64,000 bases of DNA from Flavobacterium taihuense (GTDB lineage Bacteria > Bacteroidota > Bacteroidia > Flavobacteriales > Flavobacteriaceae), in the NCBI RefSeq assembly GCF_019351435.1, contig NZ_JAHWYN010000006.1, positions 62,001-126,000 of the forward strand, written 5' to 3'. Shown in pieces: positions 2,244 through 14,327 of this stretch. Both the position numbers and the translations under genes were made by a program. Under the pieces are notes generated by a model. It made no database searches, was not told the DNA's origin, and saw nothing but the letters and a program-made list of their open reading frames with translations. Numbering within the stretch: position 1 is the stretch's first letter; each line of letters begins with the position of its first letter.

Positions 2244-3182
2244 ATGGGTGAATGGTCTAAAACAGTCGGCGAAAAAGGCGAAAAGGTAGTCGACTTTTTC
2301 TTTAAGGAAATACTCGGATATAATTCCGTTACTTCCAATGAAACAATAAACTGTATTAAGGGTACGAAACATAAATCTAAGTCAGCAAAAGGTGATAAAA
2401 CGACACATGGTATTGATGCTTTAATTAGCAGCAAAAGCCCTCTTGAAGATCAATTATTAGATATTATAGTTATATCTTCAAAATATACTGCAGACGAATA
2501 CCCTAAAAACCCAAAGGCAAAGTTCAAAGACCATTTTGAAGATTTGGCCTTTACACTTGAATGCTTCAAGAATTCTAAACTGTATTCCGAAACGAATTAT
2601 AAATTCAGCGGAATAACCAGAACAGAAATTGCAGGTATCCTAGTATGGCTATCGGACAAGAGCCCCGAAGACTATGAACTTATTCCTAAAATTGCCAATA
2701 TGCAAATTGATGCGGACCTTATTTTTGACAAGATTATTGTCCTAGATAATAATCGTATGAATTTTCTGTATCAAACGGTTTTTAGAGCAAAGGAAGTATA
2801 TGGCGTCGACAATGTTAAATTTGTATATCACAATACTAGCTTGAATATCATCGGCTTAAACTCTATAAGCTATGGCGACATCATGCCAGTACAATACATT
2901 TTCTCAGATATTATTCCACTGAGAATCGAAAAAGGAAGCGATGTGGAATTTCTTATTTTCTGTAAAGACAGTTTTTCAAAAGATAATCTTTCTAAACTTC
3001 TTTCTTTTGCAAAAAGTTTTGATCATTTAGCCTCGGCGAAGAAAACAATTTTATCTTTCCCAGATTACAATGAATTACACCACAAAGGTGCTATTGAAGG
3101 GGAATTATCTAAATTTCCTAAATACAGCTTTAATCAAAACCTTTTAGTTCGCAAGTATCCATCAGATTTTAGAAATAGTTAA
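2244..3182 (+). CDS. gapS4a: GapS4a-like anti-phage protein, predicted PD-(D/E)XK nuclease
   Basis: A 312-residue protein whose start (MGEWSK..GEKGEK), length and partner resemble GapS4a of the two-gene GAPS4 anti-phage system as I recall it. A restriction-like core is visible near the N-terminus: E10/E13 in the first helix, D58 in HGIDAL, and S79-x-K80 in VISSKYT, where the usual acidic residue before the Lys is replaced by Ser. The C-terminal half has no motif I know. Two bases separate it from the next gene, so the pair is one operon. Family assignment is from memory of the pattern and not a search. Confidence 0.62.
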   Translation: MGEWSKTVGEKGEKVVDFFFKEILGYNSVTSNETINCIKGTKHKSKSAKGDKTTHGIDALISSKSPLEDQLLDIIVISSKYTADEYPKNPKAKFKDHFEDLAFTLECFKNSKLYSETNYKFSGITRTEIAGILVWLSDKSPEDYELIPKIANMQIDADLIFDKIIVLDNNRMNFLYQTVFRAKEVYGVDNVKFVYHNTSLNIIGLNSISYGDIMPVQYIFSDIIPLRIEKGSDVEFLIFCKDSFSKDNLSKLLSFAKSFDHLASAKKTILSFPDYNELHHKGAIEGELSKFPKYSFNQNLLVRKYPSDFRNS

Positions 3183-3184
3183 AA

Positions 3185-4288
3185 ATGGAAAAAGATTTTT
3201 TACCACAAGGTGACCATATAAGACAGCTCCTAGTTAACGCGAGCATTTCAACGACCAATATTAACGGATTGCTCCGGGACAAAGGAGTTTTTCTAGGTCA
3301 CATAGAGAAGAATAATTCAATCCCACTATTGATGAAAACTCTTGTAAGTCCTGCAGATTTTCACGATTTACATGAGGCACAAAAAAAGAAGGAGGATACT
3401 ATTAAATTTAGGACTGCAACTATTAAATGTACTTCTGATGTCGATTTAACAAATGTTTTTTCTGCCCCAATGGATCTTGCTGGAAAAATCAAAGAGGCAC
3501 ACAAGTATGAGCCAAATTTTAAGCTTCTGGGGACACCGACATTCTACATCGAGGACGAGACGGCCATTTTTGACTACAAGATCGAACGTGATAATTTTCT
3601 TGAAAACTGGACCAGCAATAAGACAGAACATTCAGGGAAGGTTTTCGTCAAAAAGTCAAAGGACGGAAATCTCGAATTGTCAGTCGAACAGAATTCAACT
3701 TCAAAAGAAACTATTTTGATAAACGAGCTAATTGTTGGCGAGGTAAAAAAACTTCTTAAAGACCAAAGCTTCATCAAACCGGGGGATGATTTTATCCGCA
3801 TTAAATTTAAGGATTTTACGAACGCACAAAGGATTCAGTTTTTCTACTCCTTTACAAAAGATTTCTGCATCTATTTAAAATTTCAATCCATCACCGATAT
3901 CGATCTCTATCTTGATGAAGAACAGGAGTCACATGCAGATATTAAAGCCTTGGTTGACGAAATAGATTCATTAAAGATAAACGGACGTGGCCTCCAGAAT
4001 AACCCATTACTGAAAAACAACTTATATCATGACAAACTGATCGTTGCATCAATCTCGTTTAAGTTTAGTTTTGATATCAGGGGTGTTAAAGGTAGCGCTA
4101 ATCTTGTTATCGCATTCCCTGACTATATTGCAAAAAGATCAAGTGATGCAGAGCTACAGATTTCGCTTAATTTTACGATTGAAAAAGAACATAAGAGGAT
4201 GACAACAGAAACTCAGTTAAGAAAAGAACTTTATGCTTTCGTTGAGAAACACAAGATTGCAAACTATTCAAAATTTAAAACACCATAG
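3185..4288 (+). CDS. gapS4b: GapS4b-like anti-phage partner protein
   Basis: A 367-residue soluble protein starting 2 bp after the nuclease-like gene. The N-terminal part (LPQGDHIRQLL, GLLRDKGVFLG, followed by a segment on resisting or responding to substrate, IPLLMKTLVSP) matches my recollection of the GapS4b family. There is no signal peptide, membrane segment or catalytic motif that I can name. It is presumably the sensor or complex partner of the nuclease subunit. A terminator follows, so the operon has two genes. Confidence 0.6.
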   Translation: MEKDFLPQGDHIRQLLVNASISTTNINGLLRDKGVFLGHIEKNNSIPLLMKTLVSPADFHDLHEAQKKKEDTIKFRTATIKCTSDVDLTNVFSAPMDLAGKIKEAHKYEPNFKLLGTPTFYIEDETAIFDYKIERDNFLENWTSNKTEHSGKVFVKKSKDGNLELSVEQNSTSKETILINELIVGEVKKLLKDQSFIKPGDDFIRIKFKDFTNAQRIQFFYSFTKDFCIYLKFQSITDIDLYLDEEQESHADIKALVDEIDSLKINGRGLQNNPLLKNNLYHDKLIVASISFKFSFDIRGVKGSANLVIAFPDYIAKRSSDAELQISLNFTIEKEHKRMTTETQLRKELYAFVEKHKIANYSKFKTP

Positions 4289-4402: not shown

Positions 4403-7400
4403 CTATGGAAGAAAAATCTCCACAGGAAAATCTAATAGCTTTCCAGTTTCTATTTCACTCCTAATATTATCATTTCTTTCCAATCTGCTTTTAGTGGTAC
4501 CAGCACAATAGACCCTGAATATTGAATAATTATCACCATAGGCGAACATTTGTTTCCATTCTTCCAAAGACAATTTGATCATCTCCTTTGTCGCCGATGG
4601 TGTGCCTTTTACCTCAATACATTTTTCAATCCCGTTTTCCATAACCGTAAAATCATAAGGGAGGTAACTTTCAGCCGTCTCGTTATGCCAGATGATTTCA
4701 GTAAAGCTATCCTTGTTCTCCTGAAGATATTTATTGACATATTCCTCAGACCATCGTCCTATATCAACTTTAACTTGCGAATTTTCAATTGGTTTGTAAA
4801 TTTTGGAAGTAGTAACTGTCACTTGGGACAGGTTATTTACCACAGCAGTAACGCTTTCAAAATTAATATCTTCGACTTGTACCTCGGGTACAAAAACATT
4901 TTCAAAATCGATATCTACACCTGTATAAGGGCTTTCTGGATCTCCTGTTTCCTCCGAATATTCAGAGCTGGTACCTGGATAAAAGCCGTCATCTTCAGGG
5001 ATTTCACCCACAGGATAACCCTGTTCTTGAAGCCATAAATAGATGTCTTCAGGCTGAAGCTGCATCGCTAATCCGAATTCCCGTTCCATACCTTCCAATT
5101 TTAAAAGATCGCACAGACTGTTGCTAAGACTGTATAAAGTTACAGGCGAATTCCATTTGCCTGTAAAATAAAACTCGCCGTATTGTCCTGGCCAGCAGTC
5201 GATCTTAGAATCTACAATCACTTGCTCCTGATCTTTGTAAACCAAGCTTAGTGATTCTGCATTTATAAATTTTGTATTCCCAAAAGTTGATGTAATCTTA
5301 GAAAGCGTTTTCTGATAGTTATCAGTACTTTTTTTGGAATAAATGAATGCAAGAAATGACGCGCGTTTCATAAGCGCTTGTTGAAGTTCAACATCCTCCC
5401 TTACATTCGAAGGAACAAATTCCAGCAAATCATAAGTGATCATTGGAATATCTAAAAACTCGGACAACGCTTTTATTTCGCCTTTTGACCTTGGTGGCAC
5501 TTTAAGAAATCTATTGCTTCCCATTGGCGCCTGAGCGTTATGTACAGCAAATATATACAGGTCCGCTGCTGGTTCGAAAGTGTTGTCGATAGTAAGCATA
5601 TAACTACTGGCCTTCCACTGCTCAATTTTCGGTCTTAAAGAACGTACTACATCTGTAGGCTGACCGATAAGCTGGTCATAAATCGAAAATAACTGTTTGT
5701 TAGTATCACTGTCAAGTGGCTGGGAGCCGATCAGATTAAGTAGATGCAGGCACTCTTCTGGACTAAAAATTTTCTTGAATTTAAAAAAATCTATTTGTCC
5801 TACAGTCATCGATGCGGGTAAATCTGCAACGGGAAGATGCTGACCGATAATTGATTTTAAAGACGGTGCAAAAACATCAGTCGACTTATAACATTTACCA
5901 TCTGTGCAGGGAATACATTCAAAATTTTTAACGTAATATTCAATATAGCTCGGAACAATATTACTGCCTCCATAATAATAGTAGTGTGTAGTGTCGCATT
6001 TATATTTGAACAGATCCCAACTATCAAGCATTTTTGTCCAAAAGAACTTAGAAAAAGATGCTTCCAATAGACTTGATCTGAATTCAATTGCAGTATAATT
6101 CTGTATGTAATGTTGTCCACTTTTTCGATATGGACGATACAACGAAGGATAAGCTTCTGTACTATCCAGCCAGTTTAGATAATCAGTTGCCTCAGGATAG
6201 GTTCTTGCAAATTTTTGTCTTTCTATTTTCTCATCGATAAGATCAATAGAAATATTTTCTCTTATACCAATCTTTTTGAAAAAAACTTTCCAGTCTGTGG
6301 AATCTTCTTCAGTTTCTATATAGTCTTGTGTCAAAAAATTTGCGTTTGGCAAAATCGTTGAGAGTTTCTTTTCAGGGTTGTACTGATCTGAAAGATAACA
6401 ATGACTTGGCATCTTTAGACCATTGGTAGTTAAAACCTTCAACAACTTCAAATCCAGATAATCACTATCAGAGAGTAATTTTGCCTGATATACTTTAAAA
6501 ATAAAGCGAGTGATGACTAATCTGTTTTGCTCATTGATATCATCGTTCTTAATCATCGGAAGGATAGCTTTTCGCACAACTTCCAGATCAGTGGGTTCCC
6601 GCACCCCCAATACCTGGAGCCATTTAATTACATGTTTTTTATCGCCGTAAAAAGCTAAAATATCCTCATGAACATAATTGAGGTTTTCAAAATTGATGTC
6701 CGGAGTTACTGTCTCTGCCGGCATGAAAATTTCCTGAGGACTTTTGTATTGACCAGACTCATCCATAATAAAAGGTGCCGATTCCAATTGCGGCAGCCAG
6801 GTTGGATTATTACCGTTGATTGTCTTGTTATAAAAAAACCGTATCAAATTAATTGCTCCATTGGCATCATCAATAGCTTCAGATTCTACAAGTTTCAGCA
6901 CCTGCGAAAAAGCAAACTGCCTAGCTCCTAACGGTATTAAGCAGGATTGACTTTCCATCCGCAGATCTACTATTCCATGCGAATCGGTTATGCCGAGATA
7001 ATCTGTTATTAAGGCTGGAGGGAAGTACTCCGAAAAGCCGGTATTGTCCACTACACTTTGTGAGATTACAATGGTATCCTTACCAGACTGCTCCGGCAAG
7101 AAATCAATATCCCCAGCTGCTGCCTCAAGGCTTTTGTTATATGCGATATCGACTTTTAAATCTGAATATGCCGGATACTTGCCATTAAATAATTTAAGAA
7201 CATCGAAACGATATTGAGTTTCTTGTAAATCGCTAAACCATTCTAACTGCCGTCTTGCAATTTCGATAAACAGAAATTCATTCCAAATATTTGGCATCAA
7301 TTCAGTACGCTCTGCATTAGTGAGGAAATCTCCATTGATCAGAAATGGGAATTCCTTATTTGCTTTCGTCGGCAGGTACGAATAAATTACGGCCCTCTTA

Positions 7401-8266
7401 ATTGGTATCAAATGCTGATCTTTAACCTGTGCTGCAAATGTTAGTTTGGTCGCCTTGGCTTCTTTTAATTTCTGAGGGCATTCTGTATCGGAAAGCTGAT
7501 TAAGTTTTACTGACAGTTCCTCACTAATTGGCAGATCCATTATTTTAAATATCCAAGAACTCTGTAACTTACCATTATTGTAAAGATCTACAACATCCTG
7601 CGAGGCTTCTTTGGTTACTTCAAATATTTTTTTATCCCTGTCAAAGAGTGTAACAGTTTTAACCTTCCGTAGAAAAAGTATAATTTGACAGTCTTCAAAA
7701 ACTTTAATAATTTCTCGTTTGATATTTTCACGGTCACTGATACCAATGATTGTATTTACCCAGTCTTCGTCATAAAAGCCGGCAACTTCACTGGCAACCT
7801 GATCCGTCCAGATTGGCACAACCTGCCATGGATATTCTTCAGGGTTAGCATAACCCTCAAAATTTTTATCAAAACGAAATGAGAAGCCTCCCGAGACTAT
7901 GTGCGCATAGTCCGATGAACCAAAGACAGATTTAAAACCAATACCCTTATAACCTGTTTTTTCTACATTTTTATCCTTATCGCTTGCACGGTTACCAATA
8001 CCTGATATACCTTGAACATCTTCTTTAGTGAAATGTTTACCGTTGTGCGAAAACACAAGGTAATTATCCAGCAGTTGAAAGCGAACACTAATTGGGCTTT
8101 CGTCTGAGGAAGAATCATCAGCATTTTGCAGGAGTTCAAAAATGAACCGATTTACTTCACCAAAAACTGTTTTGGATAATACATTTAGTGTACGGGCGAG
8201 ATCCCTTGAATTGCTGTCATTTTTGGCTTTTTCTTCATGTATAGTATCAACAAATTCTTTGTACAT
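4403..8266 (-). CDS. Sacsin-like GHKL ATPase with C-terminal NO VEIN (DUF3883) domain
   Basis: A 1287-residue protein. The N-terminus is an HSP90/sacsin-type ATPase: N-box with N48 (FELLQNADD), a second motif HNGKHF at 74-79 in place of the usual DNGxG, and GYKGIGF at 105-111. The long middle (~250-1150) has no motif I can name. The last ~110 residues are the NO VEIN/DUF3883 fold with a PD-(D/E)XK-like D1205, E1218, K1220 (IEVKGT) followed by the typical SLEEWKQ helix. Large ATPase-DUF3883 proteins recur in phage-defence islands, so a defence role is likely but inferred. It faces the gapS4-like pair and has its own promoter region beyond 8266. Confidence 0.75.
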   Translation of the reverse strand: MYKEFVDTIHEEKAKNDSNSRDLARTLNVLSKTVFGEVNRFIFELLQNADDSSSDESPISVRFQLLDNYLVFSHNGKHFTKEDVQGISGIGNRASDKDKNVEKTGYKGIGFKSVFGSSDYAHIVSGGFSFRFDKNFEGYANPEEYPWQVVPIWTDQVASEVAGFYDEDWVNTIIGISDRENIKREIIKVFEDCQIILFLRKVKTVTLFDRDKKIFEVTKEASQDVVDLYNNGKLQSSWIFKIMDLPISEELSVKLNQLSDTECPQKLKEAKATKLTFAAQVKDQHLIPIKRAVIYSYLPTKANKEFPFLINGDFLTNAERTELMPNIWNEFLFIEIARRQLEWFSDLQETQYRFDVLKLFNGKYPAYSDLKVDIAYNKSLEAAAGDIDFLPEQSGKDTIVISQSVVDNTGFSEYFPPALITDYLGITDSHGIVDLRMESQSCLIPLGARQFAFSQVLKLVESEAIDDANGAINLIRFFYNKTINGNNPTWLPQLESAPFIMDESGQYKSPQEIFMPAETVTPDINFENLNYVHEDILAFYGDKKHVIKWLQVLGVREPTDLEVVRKAILPMIKNDDINEQNRLVITRFIFKVYQAKLLSDSDYLDLKLLKVLTTNGLKMPSHCYLSDQYNPEKKLSTILPNANFLTQDYIETEEDSTDWKVFFKKIGIRENISIDLIDEKIERQKFARTYPEATDYLNWLDSTEAYPSLYRPYRKSGQHYIQNYTAIEFRSSLLEASFSKFFWTKMLDSWDLFKYKCDTTHYYYYGGSNIVPSYIEYYVKNFECIPCTDGKCYKSTDVFAPSLKSIIGQHLPVADLPASMTVGQIDFFKFKKIFSPEECLHLLNLIGSQPLDSDTNKQLFSIYDQLIGQPTDVVRSLRPKIEQWKASSYMLTIDNTFEPAADLYIFAVHNAQAPMGSNRFLKVPPRSKGEIKALSEFLDIPMITYDLLEFVPSNVREDVELQQALMKRASFLAFIYSKKSTDNYQKTLSKITSTFGNTKFINAESLSLVYKDQEQVIVDSKIDCWPGQYGEFYFTGKWNSPVTLYSLSNSLCDLLKLEGMEREFGLAMQLQPEDIYLWLQEQGYPVGEIPEDDGFYPGTSSEYSEETGDPESPYTGVDIDFENVFVPEVQVEDINFESVTAVVNNLSQVTVTTSKIYKPIENSQVKVDIGRWSEEYVNKYLQENKDSFTEIIWHNETAESYLPYDFTVMENGIEKCIEVKGTPSATKEMIKLSLEEWKQMFAYGDNYSIFRVYCAGTTKSRLERNDNIRSEIETGKLLDFPVEIFLP

Positions 8267-8846: not shown

Positions 8847-9224
8847 ATGAACATCATTGGAAGAGTGACAAAAGATGCGCAGGTACGCACATTGTCAAAC
8901 AGCAAACAGGTAGTAAATTTTTCAGTAGCCATCAACGACAGCTACCGAAATAAAGCGGGCGAACGTATAGAGCAGACAACCTACTTTGATTGTGCTTACT
9001 GGCTTAGCTCAAAAGTAGTAAATATACTCGCGAAAGGCACTCTTGTGGAACTCACAGGCAGAGTAAGCGCAAGAGCGTGGACAGGCAATAACGGAGAAGT
9101 GTATGCAGGTCTGAACTTCAATACCTCGCAAATTAAATTGCACGCAGGAGGTAAAAAATCCGAAACGGTACAAACTGCCACGGAAATCAATAATAACAAA
9201 GCGGAGAACGACCTCCCATTTTAA
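8847..9224 (+). CDS. ssb: Single-stranded DNA-binding protein
   Basis: A 125-residue OB-fold SSB (MNIIGRVTKDAQV start, VVNFSVA, TTYFDCAYW, VELTGRVSARAW), shorter than chromosomal SSBs. It ends in the DLPF tip through which SSBs recruit partner proteins. In an ICE it would coat transferred single-stranded DNA. It opens the ssb-DUF932-PRTRC run and sits just after the long palindrome. Confidence 0.95.
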   Translation: MNIIGRVTKDAQVRTLSNSKQVVNFSVAINDSYRNKAGERIEQTTYFDCAYWLSSKVVNILAKGTLVELTGRVSARAWTGNNGEVYAGLNFNTSQIKLHAGGKKSETVQTATEINNNKAENDLPF

Positions 9225-9269: not shown

Positions 9270-10343
9270 ATGGCACATAATATCAATTTCAATGAGAGTA
9301 CAGGGCGTTATTCATTTTTCAGCGTTCAGCAAAAAGCGTGGCATAATTTAGGTCAAATTGTAGAGGACTATCCAACAAGTTCGGAAGCCATAAAACACGC
9401 AGGGTTAGACTATGAAGTCATTAAAACACCTTTATATACCAAAGGCTCGGGCATTATCGAAACTTCAAATGGTATAGAGATAGGCAACAACGAATTGGAA
9501 GTACCTAACTATTTTGCCAATATCCGCACTGATAACAATGCCGTATTGGGTGTGGTGGGCAAAGACTATCACATCGTACAAAACCGTGAGGCATTCAATT
9601 TCTTTGATGCTATTGTAGGCGGTGGCGAGGGAATATTGTATGAAACCGCAGGGGCATTGGGACAAGGCGAACGCATATTTATCACCGCCAAACTGCCCGA
9701 CTATATCCGAGTGGGCAATGGCGATGATGTTACAGAAAAATACATTTTTCTAACTACTTCGCACGATGGCAGTGGAAGCATCACAGCAGCCTTCACTCCT
9801 ATCCGTATTGTCTGTCAAAATACCCTTAACGCCTCGCTTCGTAATATGAGCAACGTGGTACGCATCAAACATACTTCGGGAGCAAAACAGCATTTGGAAA
9901 ATGCCCACAAACTTATGGGCTTGGCAGATACCTTAAGCACACAGTTAGAGGGAATATTCAACCATTGGGCTAAAGTAAAAGTTACTGACCAAGAAGTAAA
10001 AAAACTAATCCAATTAGCTCTTTGTCCGAATAAGGAAACATTGGATTTGCTTAAAAAGGGTGCGGAAGATGAAGTTTCCACCGTGTTCAAAAATGTGGTG
10101 CAGGATGCCTTTGCTTACGCTATGACAAGCGACACTCAACAAATGGACACCACCAAAGGCACATTGTTCGGGGCGTACAATGCTGTGACTGGCTACTACC
10201 AAAATGTTCGCAGTTACAAAGATGATGAAGCCAAGTTACAAAGTATTGTAATGGGGGGAACGGCACAGCTAAAGTCTCAAAAGGCTTTTGAACTATGCAC
10301 CTCTTTTGCAACAGACGGAGCGGAAATCTTAAATTTTAATTAA
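9270..10343 (+). CDS. DUF932 domain protein (phage/plasmid-like)
   Basis: A 357-residue soluble protein with the DUF932 signature: AWHNLGQIVEDYPTSSEA near the N-terminus, then an Asn/Asp-rich DNA-binding-like core (ILYETAGALGQGERIFITAKLP) and CQNTLNASL. DUF932 proteins are found on plasmids, phages and ICEs, usually beside ssb or recombination genes; their biochemical role is not settled. It lies 45 bp after ssb and is probably cotranscribed. Confidence 0.88.
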   Translation: MAHNINFNESTGRYSFFSVQQKAWHNLGQIVEDYPTSSEAIKHAGLDYEVIKTPLYTKGSGIIETSNGIEIGNNELEVPNYFANIRTDNNAVLGVVGKDYHIVQNREAFNFFDAIVGGGEGILYETAGALGQGERIFITAKLPDYIRVGNGDDVTEKYIFLTTSHDGSGSITAAFTPIRIVCQNTLNASLRNMSNVVRIKHTSGAKQHLENAHKLMGLADTLSTQLEGIFNHWAKVKVTDQEVKKLIQLALCPNKETLDLLKKGAEDEVSTVFKNVVQDAFAYAMTSDTQQMDTTKGTLFGAYNAVTGYYQNVRSYKDDEAKLQSIVMGGTAQLKSQKAFELCTSFATDGAEILNFN

Positions 10344-10833: not shown

Positions 10834-11370
10834 ATGAACACAAATTTTTTCAATCAGATAGCGCAAATGGGCATTACAGGAGATTTACAACTCACTATTT
10901 CAAAGGGCATAGAAAACAATCTTATTGTTTCCATTATGCTTCAAAATGAGCAATGTGGCGATGACGCAAAACAACTGATACCACCACTTAATCTAAGGGG
11001 AACGGCAGAAGAATTGGACGAGGGATTTTTTCAGCAGATAACAGCTCCTTTGCAAACCGCTTCAGGTTTAATGGTAAATATGGAAGCCTTTATGAAACAA
11101 TTGGAAGAAGCTAAAAAGCAATCGGCAATGGAAAAGGAAAAAGGAGAAAAAGAGAAAAAGGAACAGGAAGCCAAAGACAAGAAATTTAAAGAGGGAATGG
11201 CAAAAGCGGACGAATTGGAAAAAGAGGGTAAGTTCCGTGAAGCATGGATGAAAGTACCCGAAATTACCGATTACCCCGAAAAGGCAGATGAGATACGCAA
11301 ACGTAAATCGCAACTATCAAACCAATTTTCTTCAACAGGTCTGTTTGCGACTGAACAATCTACCGTTTAA
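10834..11370 (+). CDS. PRTRC system protein E
   Basis: A 178-residue protein matching PRTRC-E: MNTNFFNQIAQMGI start, an N-terminal globular part (LQLTISKG, PLNLRGTAEELDEGFF), and then a strongly charged Lys/Glu coiled-coil stretch (~95-135). It heads the PRTRC (ParB-related, ThiF-related) cassette found on plasmids and ICEs. Its function is unknown. Confidence 0.85.
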   Translation: MNTNFFNQIAQMGITGDLQLTISKGIENNLIVSIMLQNEQCGDDAKQLIPPLNLRGTAEELDEGFFQQITAPLQTASGLMVNMEAFMKQLEEAKKQSAMEKEKGEKEKKEQEAKDKKFKEGMAKADELEKEGKFREAWMKVPEITDYPEKADEIRKRKSQLSNQFSSTGLFATEQSTV

Positions 11371-11387
11371 CACAAAATCCAAGAGTT

Positions 11388-11606
11388 ATGTTATTAGCAA
11401 CACAGTTAGAACGAGTATTTATACTGAAAGATAAAGGACAGGACATCATACTCACCGACCCCGAACCACGTTGGAGTGTGGAAACGGTATTGAATTTTTA
11501 TGCCAATACGTATCCCATACTAACCACCGCAAAAATATCTGCCCCCATTATCCGTGATGATAGGATAGAATACAAATTGGAGAGCGTAATGGGAACGAAA
11601 GGTTAA
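11388..11606 (+). CDS. PRTRC system protein C, ubiquitin-like
   Basis: A 72-residue protein with the PRTRC-C pattern (F-L-DPEPRWSVETVLNFYANTYP). The size, the strand-helix-strand layout and the C-terminus ending in MGTKG are those of a ubiquitin-like modifier with a terminal glycine. It lies between E and F and upstream of an E2-like and an E1-like gene. That it is conjugated to targets is inference. Confidence 0.85.
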   Translation: MLLATQLERVFILKDKGQDIILTDPEPRWSVETVLNFYANTYPILTTAKISAPIIRDDRIEYKLESVMGTKG

Positions 11607-11620
11607 ACTAAAAATCAAAA

Positions 11621-12799
11621 ATGATGAACTATGCAACGCAATATAGTATCGGGAACTATCAGCATACCCCAGCAGAAAACACAACGGCAACTGCACCAAC
11701 AATTAGGCGAGTTCGCACAATGGATGCAAAGAGCCAAAGATGCAGACGAGGTACGGAAAGACAAACAGAAATCTGTACCGATAGCAATGCTTCCGATGGT
11801 TTTTTAAAGTGTGTGTTTCTGCCTAAACTGAAAACAGTGCAATCCGCACAGGCTTGTAAGAAAACAGCAAAAACGGAGAGGGATTTTTACAAGTCCCTTT
11901 CCCAACTTGCAGAACATTACGGCATTGAACCGTTACAAACGAAAGGTTATGGCTATCCCTATAATATGACTTTGGCTATGTGGGATGCTGAAACCAAGTT
12001 AAAAATAAACAATGTCAATTGGGATAATTTACGTTTGGTACAGAATAGTAAGAAAACATTTTTTACGAGCGAAGAACGATACAGCACAGGTACAACCCTG
12101 TACTATATTCCAATTGCGCCACTCTTTCAAATGCTCAATGACCCAAAGCGTAAAAAGACGGCTCAATTGCTTGTTTCAGTTTGCAGTTATCTGTACCATA
12201 TTGCCGATATACCGTATTACAGACAGGAAAACAGCTATTTATATTGGCTGTACGAAATGATGAACGATTGGGTTGAACAGGATGATTATACCGAAGAAAC
12301 GGAAAGCTATATTGCTGAGATTGTAAAAGCCGAATGGATAGGCGAACGAATAGAACAAAAACTTTTCAACCGCATTAATTTACAGGTATTTGAACAGCGT
12401 TTAAACAACTTCAAAACCCGTGACACATTCGACCAAGAATGCCAAAAAGTGGCTTGCAATGCCTTTGCCCTTTATGCCCAATATCCGCACGAGAGCATTT
12501 TCCGAAACGCACCAAGACCCGAAGAAGACCCCTACAATGATGAAAACGACTCCGAAACCGTTGGAATGGAAAAATACATCTCCTTTATAGCTGATACTAC
12601 AGGCTGGTTGTATGAGAGACTTGCAGACAGTATTAACAATGAGTTTAACGAGTATGGAGCAATGGAAGAACCGACCATTTGCAAACGCTTTGACGGAAGC
12701 AACATTACACAAACCAATCTTGATTTTGAGAACCGCCTGTTTGCCCTTTTGGACGAACTCTGCACATTACTGTATGATTATAAAACGACAAGAAAATGA
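11621..12799 (+). CDS. PRTRC system protein F-like; N-terminal frame doubtful
   Basis: The open frame runs 392 codons from ATG 11621. The part after about residue 65 is a convincing protein, acidic and helical (DFYKSLSQLAEHYGIEPL, then Trp/Tyr-rich helices), in the position of PRTRC-F. The first ~60 residues look like out-of-frame translation (Thr/Arg/Gln-rich). An overlapping frame from ATG 11631 reads more like protein there and meets this frame at a T6A3 run (11800-11808). The true start may be later, or the gene may need a -1 shift. It overlaps the B gene by 4 bp (ATGA). Confidence 0.6.
   Translation: MMNYATQYSIGNYQHTPAENTTATAPTIRRVRTMDAKSQRCRRGTERQTEICTDSNASDGFLKCVFLPKLKTVQSAQACKKTAKTERDFYKSLSQLAEHYGIEPLQTKGYGYPYNMTLAMWDAETKLKINNVNWDNLRLVQNSKKTFFTSEERYSTGTTLYYIPIAPLFQMLNDPKRKKTAQLLVSVCSYLYHIADIPYYRQENSYLYWLYEMMNDWVEQDDYTEETESYIAEIVKAEWIGERIEQKLFNRINLQVFEQRLNNFKTRDTFDQECQKVACNAFALYAQYPHESIFRNAPRPEEDPYNDENDSETVGMEKYISFIADTTGWLYERLADSINNEFNEYGAMEEPTICKRFDGSNITQTNLDFENRLFALLDELCTLLYDYKTTRK
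11631..11807 (+). CDS. 58-residue ORF overlapping the start of PRTRC-F
   Basis: ATG 11631 opens a 58-codon frame, +1 relative to the long ORF, ending in TAA at 11805-11807. Its product (QQLGEFAQWMQRAKDADEV, then SVPIAMLPMVF) has amphipathic helices and a normal composition. It is either the true N-terminus of the F protein in another frame or a separate small gene. Confidence 0.45.
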   Translation: MQRNIVSGTISIPQQKTQRQLHQQLGEFAQWMQRAKDADEVRKDKQKSVPIAMLPMVF

Positions 12800-13518
12800 A
12801 CAATATAAACGACATAACCGAGAATTTTGGAACGCTTTACCACCCAAAATCGGCATTGGTTTTTTACCAAACCAAAGGAACGAATACCAATATGTACGTG
12901 GAGCATTTTGATATGGACAAAAATGGAAATCCTATCAATGCACATCCATTAAGCGTAAATGAAGCTAAAGTATTGGCAAAGGCTTTACACACCGATAAAG
13001 AAAAGGACAAAACCTTTTTAAAGCCAAAAGGAATTTTGCTGACCAATATACTGCACATTAATCCGAGCGAAAAAGGCACGGTGCTTTGGTACACCAAAGC
13101 ACAGGAACAGCAATTATATTTTGTAAACGGTTTGGGCATACCCAACGGCAAAGCGTATGTACCGCCAATGCTTTGGTATGCCAGTAAAAATAGCCTTGCG
13201 GTATTTGCTCTTGCAACTGACAGAAGACCAACAGAAAAGACATTATTGTATTATGCTCCTTTCTTCAATATTTATGAAGACGGTAAAGTATGTATGGGAA
13301 CTGTAAGTATAGATATTAAAAATTCCGCTTCCGTAGAGGAATTTACAACAGCTTGGGAAAACTACTTTTTTAACAGCTATTTCAGCCATTTATTAGGAAA
13401 ACAAAATCCCATAAAAGGGAATTGCGTAAACCTTTGGAAAAAACTGATTGAAACACGCGAAATATTTCCTAAAGAGACGTTAAAAAAGAATAACAAAACC
13501 CTTAAAAACCTTTTGTGA
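12796..13518 (+). CDS. PRTRC system protein B, E2-like
   Basis: A 240-residue protein of the PRTRC-B family (LYHPKSALVFY; LPPxLWYASKNSLAVFAL-type segment; RPTEKTLLYYAPFFN). The stretch PFFNIYEDGKVCMGT resembles the catalytic region of E2 ubiquitin-conjugating enzymes (HPN..DGxVCL), which places C166 as the candidate thioester cysteine. It overlaps F by 4 bp at its start and ThiF by 4 bp at its end, so all three are coupled. E2 activity is inferred. Confidence 0.85.
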   Translation: MNNINDITENFGTLYHPKSALVFYQTKGTNTNMYVEHFDMDKNGNPINAHPLSVNEAKVLAKALHTDKEKDKTFLKPKGILLTNILHINPSEKGTVLWYTKAQEQQLYFVNGLGIPNGKAYVPPMLWYASKNSLAVFALATDRRPTEKTLLYYAPFFNIYEDGKVCMGTVSIDIKNSASVEEFTTAWENYFFNSYFSHLLGKQNPIKGNCVNLWKKLIETREIFPKETLKKNNKTLKNLL

Positions 13519-14327
13519 TGAATACCGAGAAACTAAAAGTACATTTTACAGATAACTATCTGATAAGCCCAACCAATCCCATTGCGGTAAACTTAATCGG
13601 TGCAGGTGGCACAGGCTCAAAAGTTTTGACCGCTTTAATGGAAATAAACCATAGCTTAATCGAATTGGAACACGCAGGGCTACGTGTCCGTCTATGGGAT
13701 GATGATATTGTGACCAATGCGAATTTAGGGAGACAGCGTTTTGCTGAAAGTGAAACAGGGTTATACAAATCCGTTGCACTCATCAACCGTGCAAACCGCT
13801 TTTCAGGGACAAATTGGAAAGCCGAAACCGCAAAGTTTGAAAAGGACAGTTTGGGCAGAATACCCGAAGAAGCACAGGCAACTATTTACATTACCTGCGT
13901 TGACAATGTACAGGCGAGGTTTGGCGTCGCCGAAATATTGAAAGAAGTAAGCAACCGCAGACACCACAGGGACGAACCAAAATATTGGTTGGATTTTGGC
14001 AACAGCCAGCATACAGGACAAGTGTTACTATCCACCATAGGAAACATTCACCAGCCCAATTCGGAGAAATACGAAACGGTGGCAAACCTGCCAATGATTA
14101 CGGAAGAATTTGGAGAATTATTGAAGCAGTCCGAACAAGAGGATGACACACCAAGTTGTAGTTTAGCGGAAGCATTGGAGAAACAGGATTTGTTTATCAA
14201 TTCCTCTTTAACCCAGATGGGATGTTCGCTTTTATGGAGCTTGTTTCGACATGGTATGACACCGTACAGGGGATTTTTTCACAATCTGAAGGACTTTCGT
14301 ACCCATCCCATAAAAGTCGCCTTATAG
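13515..14327 (+). CDS. PRTRC system ThiF family protein, E1-like
   Basis: A 270-residue E1/ThiF/MoeB-fold adenylating enzyme. G29-AGGTGS is the ATP loop, DDDIVTNANLGRQRF carries the acidic and NLxRQ motif that contacts ATP, and TCVDNVQAR is the D-N-R loop. C215 in TPSCSLAEA sits where E1 enzymes carry the catalytic cysteine (P-x-C-T/S). It would activate the C-terminal glycine of a ubiquitin-like partner, for which PRTRC-C is the candidate. It is the last gene of the cassette; PRTRC-A, D and ParB-like members are not seen here. Confidence 0.9.
   Translation: MMNTEKLKVHFTDNYLISPTNPIAVNLIGAGGTGSKVLTALMEINHSLIELEHAGLRVRLWDDDIVTNANLGRQRFAESETGLYKSVALINRANRFSGTNWKAETAKFEKDSLGRIPEEAQATIYITCVDNVQARFGVAEILKEVSNRRHHRDEPKYWLDFGNSQHTGQVLLSTIGNIHQPNSEKYETVANLPMITEEFGELLKQSEQEDDTPSCSLAEALEKQDLFINSSLTQMGCSLLWSLFRHGMTPYRGFFHNLKDFRTHPIKVAL

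What the first reader, a model, noticed from the sequence alone, without database searches (positions are those of the whole stretch)
10834..14327. PRTRC cassette reads as a mobile ubiquitin-like conjugation system
Seen: a 72-residue protein ending in GTKG, a 240-residue protein with PFFNIYEDGKVCMGT (C166), and a ThiF protein with GAGGTGS, NLGRQRF and C215 in TPSCSLAEA, in one coupled operon. Known: PRTRC-C, B and ThiF are conserved together on plasmids and ICEs, and the C-terminal Gly, E2-like Cys loop and E1-like motifs are hallmarks of Ub, E2 and E1. Inference: C is activated by ThiF and passed to B. No JAB-type peptidase or ParB partner is present in the window. Related bacterial Ub-like operons act in phage defence, so a role in element maintenance or defence is worth testing.
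Basis: partly seen in the sequence, partly recalled or inferred. Interest (0 to 1): 0.75.

Follow-up and report, generated by a model that had tools for sequence, protein, structure and literature searches.

The report
Mobile bacterial ubiquitin cassette, hidden gene
A mobile DNA element in a bacterium carries a small set of genes that looks like a stripped-down ubiquitin tagging system, predicted since 2006, and comparing its relatives reveals an overlooked small gene that is sometimes fused to the ubiquitin-like protein, so far only where a matching cutting enzyme is present.

Summary
In detail: PRTRC E, C (ubiquitin-like, ends GTKG), F, B (E2-like, C166) and ThiF (E1-like, C215). The ubiquitin reading is not new: Iyer et al. 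2006 described this operon type (row 6d). Gly, C166 and C215 are nearly invariant. Predicted B ranks E2 enzymes first; C looks beta-grasp (modest scores).

Two results appear new. (1) A small gene, X, follows C; in the window it is 58 codons (11631-11807), overlapping F out of frame. It is under protein-level selection and has no significant Pfam, NCBIfam or PHROGs match. (2) C carries a tail beyond its Gly only where the JAB peptidase gene (PRTRC A) is present: 33 of 50 JAB+ against 0 of 133 JAB- loci. In some JAB+ loci the tail is X itself, while close relatives encode X separately. This fits JAB cutting a pro-Ubl behind GxKG. The window is of the JAB-less class, its Gly already exposed.

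All chemistry is inferred. Maintenance or defence was not tested. JAB status follows phylogeny; within named Pseudomonadota alone the rule is not significant (p=0.07).

The parts
10834..11370 (+). PRTRC protein E (178 aa), role unknown
   Evidence: PF19556 265.5 bits, TIGR03741 50.7 bits
11388..11606 (+). PRTRC protein C, ubiquitin-like beta-grasp protein (72 aa) ending GTKG
   Evidence: PF14454 82.9 bits; AF2 pLDDT 87.0, beta-grasp neighbours; Gly72 invariant in the 51-row alignment A4
11631..11807 (+). X: overlooked small gene (58 codons + stop), C-terminus SVPIAMLPMVF; overlaps the F ORF out of frame
   Evidence: position and C-terminal motif conserved behind C; synonymous excess in the X frame only; no significant Pfam, NCBIfam or PHROGs match, best E 0.11
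11621..12799 (+). PRTRC F-position protein (392-codon ORF; true start uncertain because its first ~62 codons overlap X)
   Evidence: ORF and synteny; no curated family over cut-off
12796..13518 (+). PRTRC protein B, E2-like, C166 and H198
   Evidence: PF14460 116.6 bits; AF2 pLDDT 89.3; VIA rows 1-39 all E2 entries, best 7ahf Z 5.2, rmsd 4.1, 112 aligned
13515..14327 (+). PRTRC ThiF, E1-like adenylyltransferase, K85, D130, C215
   Evidence: TIGR03736 232 bits; profile matches UBA6, UBA1, NAE, UBA5, Cap2 in PDB; conservation
8847..9224 (+). SSB, usual companion of the cassette in Bacteroidota elements
   Evidence: PF00436 62.5 bits; synteny
9270..10343 (+). DUF932 / TIGR03299 phage-plasmid-like protein, usual companion
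   Evidence: PF06067 231.7 bits; synteny

Best explanation
The cassette is a minimal, element-borne ubiquitin-like modification system of operon type 6d. Proposed working: ThiF adenylates the exposed C-terminal Gly of C and takes it on C215; C passes to C166 of B (with H198 in place of the classical E2 His); B attaches it to unknown target(s). A small partner, X, is made right behind C. In JAB-bearing cassettes C may be born as a pro-protein, sometimes fused directly to X, and PRTRC A cuts behind GxKG. The window's cassette belongs to the JAB-less class: C is made with its Gly ready, X is a separate gene, and any conjugate is irreversible or removed by something else. Shown by sequence: the genes, the conserved residues, X and its selection, and the tail/JAB association. 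Inferred: every chemical step, X's role, the targets. For purpose I favour a task in the element's own establishment or maintenance (SSB-DUF932 neighbours here; ParB beside many plasmid cassettes), at about 0.4; defence about 0.25.
For: Families. ThiF C215 205 of 206 (1 gap), K85 206 of 206, D130 205 of 206 (1 gap); B (those over 150 aa) C166 198 of 200, H198 183 of 200. Tail beyond GxKG: 33 of 50 JAB+ against 0 of 133 JAB- loci; Fisher 4e-24 ignoring kinship; parsimony needs 8 tail changes and 6 JAB changes; Pagel-type LR 15.6, 4 df, p 0.0036, and 4 of 328 simulations with 20-50 extended tips fell all in JAB+. JAMM residues E99, H146, H148, S156, D159 invariant in the 6 A proteins aligned. 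Separate X of L263 against the fused tails of 8 relatives picked: 49-60% identity, their C proteins 70-85%; L263/L264 score 163 against a best of 43 in 200 shuffles. X motif: 101 of 135 JAB- loci behind C against 440 of 11871 control ORFs (motif widened). Folds. E1 profile.
Against: I saw no biochemistry for any member; I read none of the 26 papers that hold the word PRTRC. JAB status is confounded with phylogeny: most JAB- loci are Bacteroidota or viral contigs; in hand-made lists of named Pseudomonadota the tail rule is 10 of 23 (3 of the 10 with tails of 3-5 residues) against 0 of 6, p=0.07. Independent pairs on the tree cannot reach significance. Two B proteins have Ala at C166 (L215, L216) and one C ends GTKA (L160). 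Foldseek alone gave no match at E<=0.001 for B or C and VIA Z stays under 8. In 16 of 50 earlier and 18 of 61 held-out JAB+ loci the tail of C is another sequence and X follows separately; 11 more have a tail and no recognised X, so the tail is not always X. X was not found in 34 of 135 JAB- loci.
Confidence: 0.62

Rival explanations
1. Sulfur carrier instead of protein modifier: C is a ThiS/MoaD-like carrier, ThiF makes a thiocarboxylate, and B is a structural or acceptor subunit.
For: ThiF matches ThiF and MoeB profiles too. A bacterial JAMM protease is reported to cut a MoaD-MoaE fusion (PMC8832034, abstract in the listing). A PAPS-reductase family gene lies near three plasmid cassettes (L223, L226, L238).
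Against: B has an E2-family profile with a near-invariant Cys. ThiF carries no second Pfam domain such as rhodanese, and no sulfurtransferase is annotated between E and ThiF in the annotated plasmid loci.
Confidence: 0.15
2. Anti-phage or anti-plasmid defence module, like CBASS Cap2/Cap3 or Bil.
For: Both full cassettes of this genome lie beside defence-type genes: TmtA (1204.6 bits) in the window and GajA/GajB at L004. Related E1/E2 systems act in defence (PMC10097602, listing and abstract; PMC11354881, passages).
Against: PADLOC gives the cassette genes only weak E1-E2 matches to ThiF (best E 0.0028). On plasmids the cassette often sits with ParB or dnaN genes, and contigs filed as viral carry it too. 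Two copies are an anecdote; neighbour enrichment was not tested.
Confidence: 0.25
3. The tail/JAB association is only phylogeny: extended C proteins arose in a few Pseudomonadota-like lineages that happen to keep JAB.
For: Not significant within named Pseudomonadota (p=0.07); the held-out set was gathered with the JAB protein and has no contrast.
Against: Eight tail changes on the ThiF tree with no tail outside JAB+; dependent model preferred, p 0.0036; fused and split forms among close relatives, all JAB+.
Confidence: 0.2
4. X is not a gene but a by-product of the overlapping F frame.
For: In the window X overlaps F; the F frame is open across X in 27 of 39 loci against 6.5 expected from synonymous recoding (near relatives counted apart).
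Against: Selection is in the X frame (349 synonymous/659 non-synonymous, against 116/919 and 81/963). X is fused in frame to C in 23 loci (examples) and a separate protein is annotated at its place in L229.
Confidence: 0.05

Closest known systems
Operon type 6d of Iyer, Burroughs and Aravind 2006 (PMC1779556), which I equate with the PRTRC system of NCBIfam
   Same: Ub-like protein with terminal Gly, E1-like, E2-like with downstream His, helical protein; Bacteroides listed; some such clusters on mobile elements. The paper also predicts JAB processing of the Ub-like proteins of such systems.
   Different: The paper lists JAB as part of type 6d; the window's class has none. X and C-X fusions are not mentioned in what I read (section 14, Table row 6d, searched passages). 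The equation with PRTRC is mine, from the parts list.
BilABCD (known to me only as described in the review PMC11354881, passages)
   Same: Ubl, E2, JAB DUB and E1 in one operon; BilC cuts BilA to expose its Gly.
   Different: BilA has two Ubl domains. Here the tail can be a separate conserved partner gene and the JAB can be absent. BilB and BilD were not compared with B and ThiF.
DRJAMM and the MoaD-MoaE fusion of Deinococcus (PMC8832034, abstract in a listing)
   Same: A bacterial JAMM protease separates a Ub-like protein from a fused partner.
   Different: A cofactor pathway without E2 (recalled); X was not compared with MoaE.
CBASS Cap2/Cap3
   Same: E1/E2 chemistry with a JAB protease.
   Different: Fused E1-E2 protein and a cGAS-like partner (recalled; PMC10097602 seen as listing and abstract); only weak E1-E2 matches here.
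Eukaryotic ubiquitin-ribosomal protein fusion genes (recalled)
   Same: A Ubl fused behind its Gly to an unrelated small protein that must be cut off.
   Different: Here the same partner occurs fused and unfused among near relatives, and the presumed cutter is a JAB in the operon.

Membership tests
PRTRC system / operon type 6d | C (Ubl), B (E2-like), ThiF and E together | tested here: met
   C, E and ThiF over NCBIfam cut-offs, B over the Pfam cut-off but just under TIGR03737's
PRTRC system / operon type 6d | JAB peptidase (PRTRC A) | tested here: not met
   none in the element or genome, positive controls; 133 of 183 loci lack it, so I call this a JAB-less variant of type 6d
PRTRC system / operon type 6d | PRTRC ParB protein | tested here: not met
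   only one below-cut-off match, on contig C11
PRTRC system / operon type 6d | PRTRC F | tested here: inconclusive
   right place in the operon, no curated family over cut-off
Ubiquitin-like beta-grasp modifier | beta-grasp fold and terminal Gly | tested here: met
   PF14454; AF2/VIA neighbours protein L, ubiquitin, FAT10, Z 4.4-5.3, weak; Gly in 132 of 133 JAB- loci
E2 (UBC) superfamily | UBC fold with active-site Cys | tested here: met
   PF14460; VIA rows 1-39 all E2 entries, Z 3.5-5.2, first unrelated row 3.0 (Z under 8, so moderate); C166 198 of 200
E1-like | ATP-site motifs and a conserved candidate catalytic Cys | tested here: met
   catalysis itself not tested
Ub-like conjugation system | covalent attachment of C to targets | not testable with these tools
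   needs biochemistry
Anti-phage defence system | protection against phage | not testable with these tools
   needs plaque assays

The most novel reading that the evidence does not exclude
PRTRC cassettes contain an overlooked, widespread small component X (recognised, separate or fused, in 199 of 246 loci), the dedicated partner or first substrate of the ubiquitin-like protein C. Its gene switches between separate and C-X fused forms, the fused form being viable only with the JAB peptidase: a bacterial counterpart of ubiquitin fusion genes. Bacteroidota elements carry a JAB-less, one-way version of the system.
Probability: 0.45. Interest if true: 0.78.

Novelty: new variant of a known kind. 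Interest (0 to 1): 0.6.

Why it matters
The type 6d prediction has stood since 2006, and the listings of my searches showed no experiment on it (open-licence papers only, PRTRC papers not read). Natural C-X fusions give a ready-made JAB substrate with a defined cut site, and X gives a named candidate partner. The JAB-less class offers a very small ubiquitin-type system for reconstitution.

Tried and rejected
Considered and dropped: RadC as a substitute JAB. A RadC-like HNHP-type motif lies near five JAB- cassettes (L069, L115, L119, L127, L143), but this genome has a single RadC, on contig C45.

Dead ends: A1 was too diverse for a contig scan; viral scans with L062 ThiF, L009 ThiF and A6 found no relatives; the L007 scan gave 5 loci. 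PDB sequence searches with B and C gave only matches with E above 0.2; Foldseek gave nothing at E<=0.001. The first tree run used unset tail labels and is void, replaced. In one search fitted gain rates sat at the search bound and the root was set at the midpoint.

One search left out L070 (extended, JAB+ by eye), L076, L108, L200 (exact, JAB- by eye) and L120 (C truncated to 61 aa); L058's cut point was misread by four residues but it is extended either way. In one search the motif was narrower (105 of 172 ORFs behind C, 403 of 20956 elsewhere); I widened it, so one search is not blind. Of the held-out 80, 17 were dropped as contigs already seen (list made by hand), and 2 had no C. An HMM of X grown from 38 Bacteroidota-type seeds stayed in JAB- loci (105 of 133) and did not reach the JAB+ ones; at E<=0.001 10 of its 112 hits were not behind C. 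X in JAB+ loci therefore rests on position, motif and the pairs.
Full report
What is there. The window opens just behind mnmE on contig C56 of a 4.7-Mb draft genome. The last ~20 bases of mnmE and the following stretch recur at C56:258230, so the window lies in an element (or elements) of about 196 kb inserted at the 3' end of mnmE. Near its left end, after an integrase-like ORF (read by eye), lie SSB, DUF932 and the cassette E-C-(X)-F-B-ThiF. The genome holds a second full copy on contig C3 (L004; C, E, F, B and ThiF 89.5-95.2% identical) and a ThiF remnant on C72.

Known identity. The proteins fall in families already named for this idea: Prok_Ub, Prok-E2_D, PRTRC_E, PRTRC ThiF. Iyer et al. 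2006 (PMC1779556; section 14 and searched passages read) described what I take to be this operon as type 6d, with the terminal Gly, an E2 whose His lies downstream of the Cys, a helical protein and a JAB, listed Bacteroides ('Bthe'), and speculated on addiction or defence for such systems. Of 26 papers holding the word PRTRC, none has it in the title and one in the abstract; I read none of them.

Conservation. I collected loci by protein similarity from plasmids, 296 Bacteroidota genomes, GTDB contigs and viral contigs; several lists are capped. ThiF C215 is present in 205 of 206 rows (one gap), B C166 in 198 of 200 and H198 in 183 of 200. In the Bacteroidota sample 10 of 296 genomes pass the ThiF cut-off.

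Folds. AlphaFold2 gave B pLDDT 89.3 and C 87.0. For B, the first 39 VIA rows are all E2 entries (best UBE2S 7ahf, Z 5.2, rmsd 4.1, 112 aligned), the first unrelated row having Z 3.0. C aligns with beta-grasp proteins (protein L Z 5.3, ubiquitin 5.0, FAT10 4.9). These Z values are modest, and Foldseek alone found nothing significant. The ThiF profile matches eukaryotic E1s (best E 2.2e-10).

The tail rule. Among 183 loci with a readable C, 50 have PRTRC A and 133 do not. C runs past GxKG in 33 of the 50 and in none of the 133. The tails are 1 to 100 residues long; 29 of the 33 are 20 or more. On the ThiF tree JAB status needs 6 changes and the tail 8; a dependent model beats an independent one (LR 15.6, 4 df). 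Caveats: most JAB- loci are Bacteroidota or viral contigs; within named Pseudomonadota it is 10 of 23 against 0 of 6, p 0.07. PRTRC A has the full JAMM set in the six aligned.

The hidden gene X. Following the tails led to small ORFs right behind C. In the window this is 11631-11807, 58 codons, ending SVPIAMLPMVF. Over 28 homologues of equal length the X frame shows 349 synonymous and 659 non-synonymous codon changes, the other two frames 116/919 and 81/963; changes by codon position are 502, 361, 736 (all pairs share the window and are not independent). Small ORFs behind C end in the proline-hydrophobic motif in 105 of 172 cases against 403 of 20956 elsewhere; with a wider motif, chosen after, 101 of 135 JAB- loci and 41 of 43 JAB+ loci with exact or short C have it, against 440 of 11871 control ORFs.

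Fused or separate. In 23 JAB+ loci (3 of 50 earlier, 20 of 61 held-out) the tail of C itself carries the motif and no separate X follows; in 34 more the tail is another sequence and X follows separately; in 11 there is a tail and no recognised X. L263 has a separate X starting within a few bases of C's stop; eight relatives, picked from the list, carry the same protein (49-60% identity) fused directly behind GTKG, their C being 70-85% identical. All held-out loci have A, but that set was gathered with A.

Mechanism and doubts. I read this as a Ub-like relay C to ThiF to B, with A as maturation and perhaps removal enzyme where present, and X as a co-made partner. The window's version lacks A, so C is born mature. 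The F frame is open across X in 27 of 39 loci against 6.5 expected, which I cannot explain; dual coding or shared descent are possible. Purpose is open: SSB/DUF932 company in Bacteroidota (both in 9 of 12 loci) and ParB or dnaN company on plasmids suggest element maintenance, TmtA and Gabija neighbours of the two copies here suggest defence, and PAPS-reductase family genes near three plasmid cassettes keep a sulfur role alive; none was tested.

Verdict. As a ubiquitin-like cassette it is a known prediction; the JAB-less class as a class, the tail rule and X are what is new here, as far as the papers I could read show.

Noticed in passing
L003:13831-14000, window 1-~320, L327 (C56:258230 onward): The element is inserted at the 3' end of mnmE; the far end repeats the mnmE end plus about 320 bases including the start of the element's first ORF, so a second element with a similar left end probably follows in tandem.
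   Followed up: partly
window 4403-8266 (-): 1287-aa sacsin-type ATPase with NO VEIN C-terminal domain, matching PADLOC TmtA at 1204.6 bits, next to the cassette; 2244-4288 hold two ORFs without a PADLOC match beside it.
   Followed up: no
L004:79-2704: A 3' part of GajA (cut by the contig end) and a GajB (Gabija) lie beside the second cassette copy.
   Followed up: no
L226: A Burkholderia cepacia plasmid has B-A-ThiF directly behind conjugation genes, with no C, E or F annotated in the stretch.
   Followed up: no
L223, L226, L238: A PAPS-reductase family gene lies a little downstream of the cassette on three plasmids.
   Followed up: no
L215, L216 (B) and L160 (C): Natural Ala at the E2-like Cys in two loci and a C ending GTKA in one; possible inactive or regulatory variants.
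   Followed up: no
window 11631-11807: The F frame is open across X in 27 of 39 Bacteroidota-type loci against 6.5 expected, unexplained.
   Followed up: partly
L185-L213, L249, L278 and others: In one viral-contig group the tail of C is a variable stretch ending in a common CPLLDEEVAFINALHARYC-type end, of changing length, mostly with X separate behind it; function unknown.
   Followed up: partly
window 36422-59066 (-): Long run of copper/metal-type efflux and oxidase genes with several related small-protein genes, within the element (read by eye).
   Followed up: no
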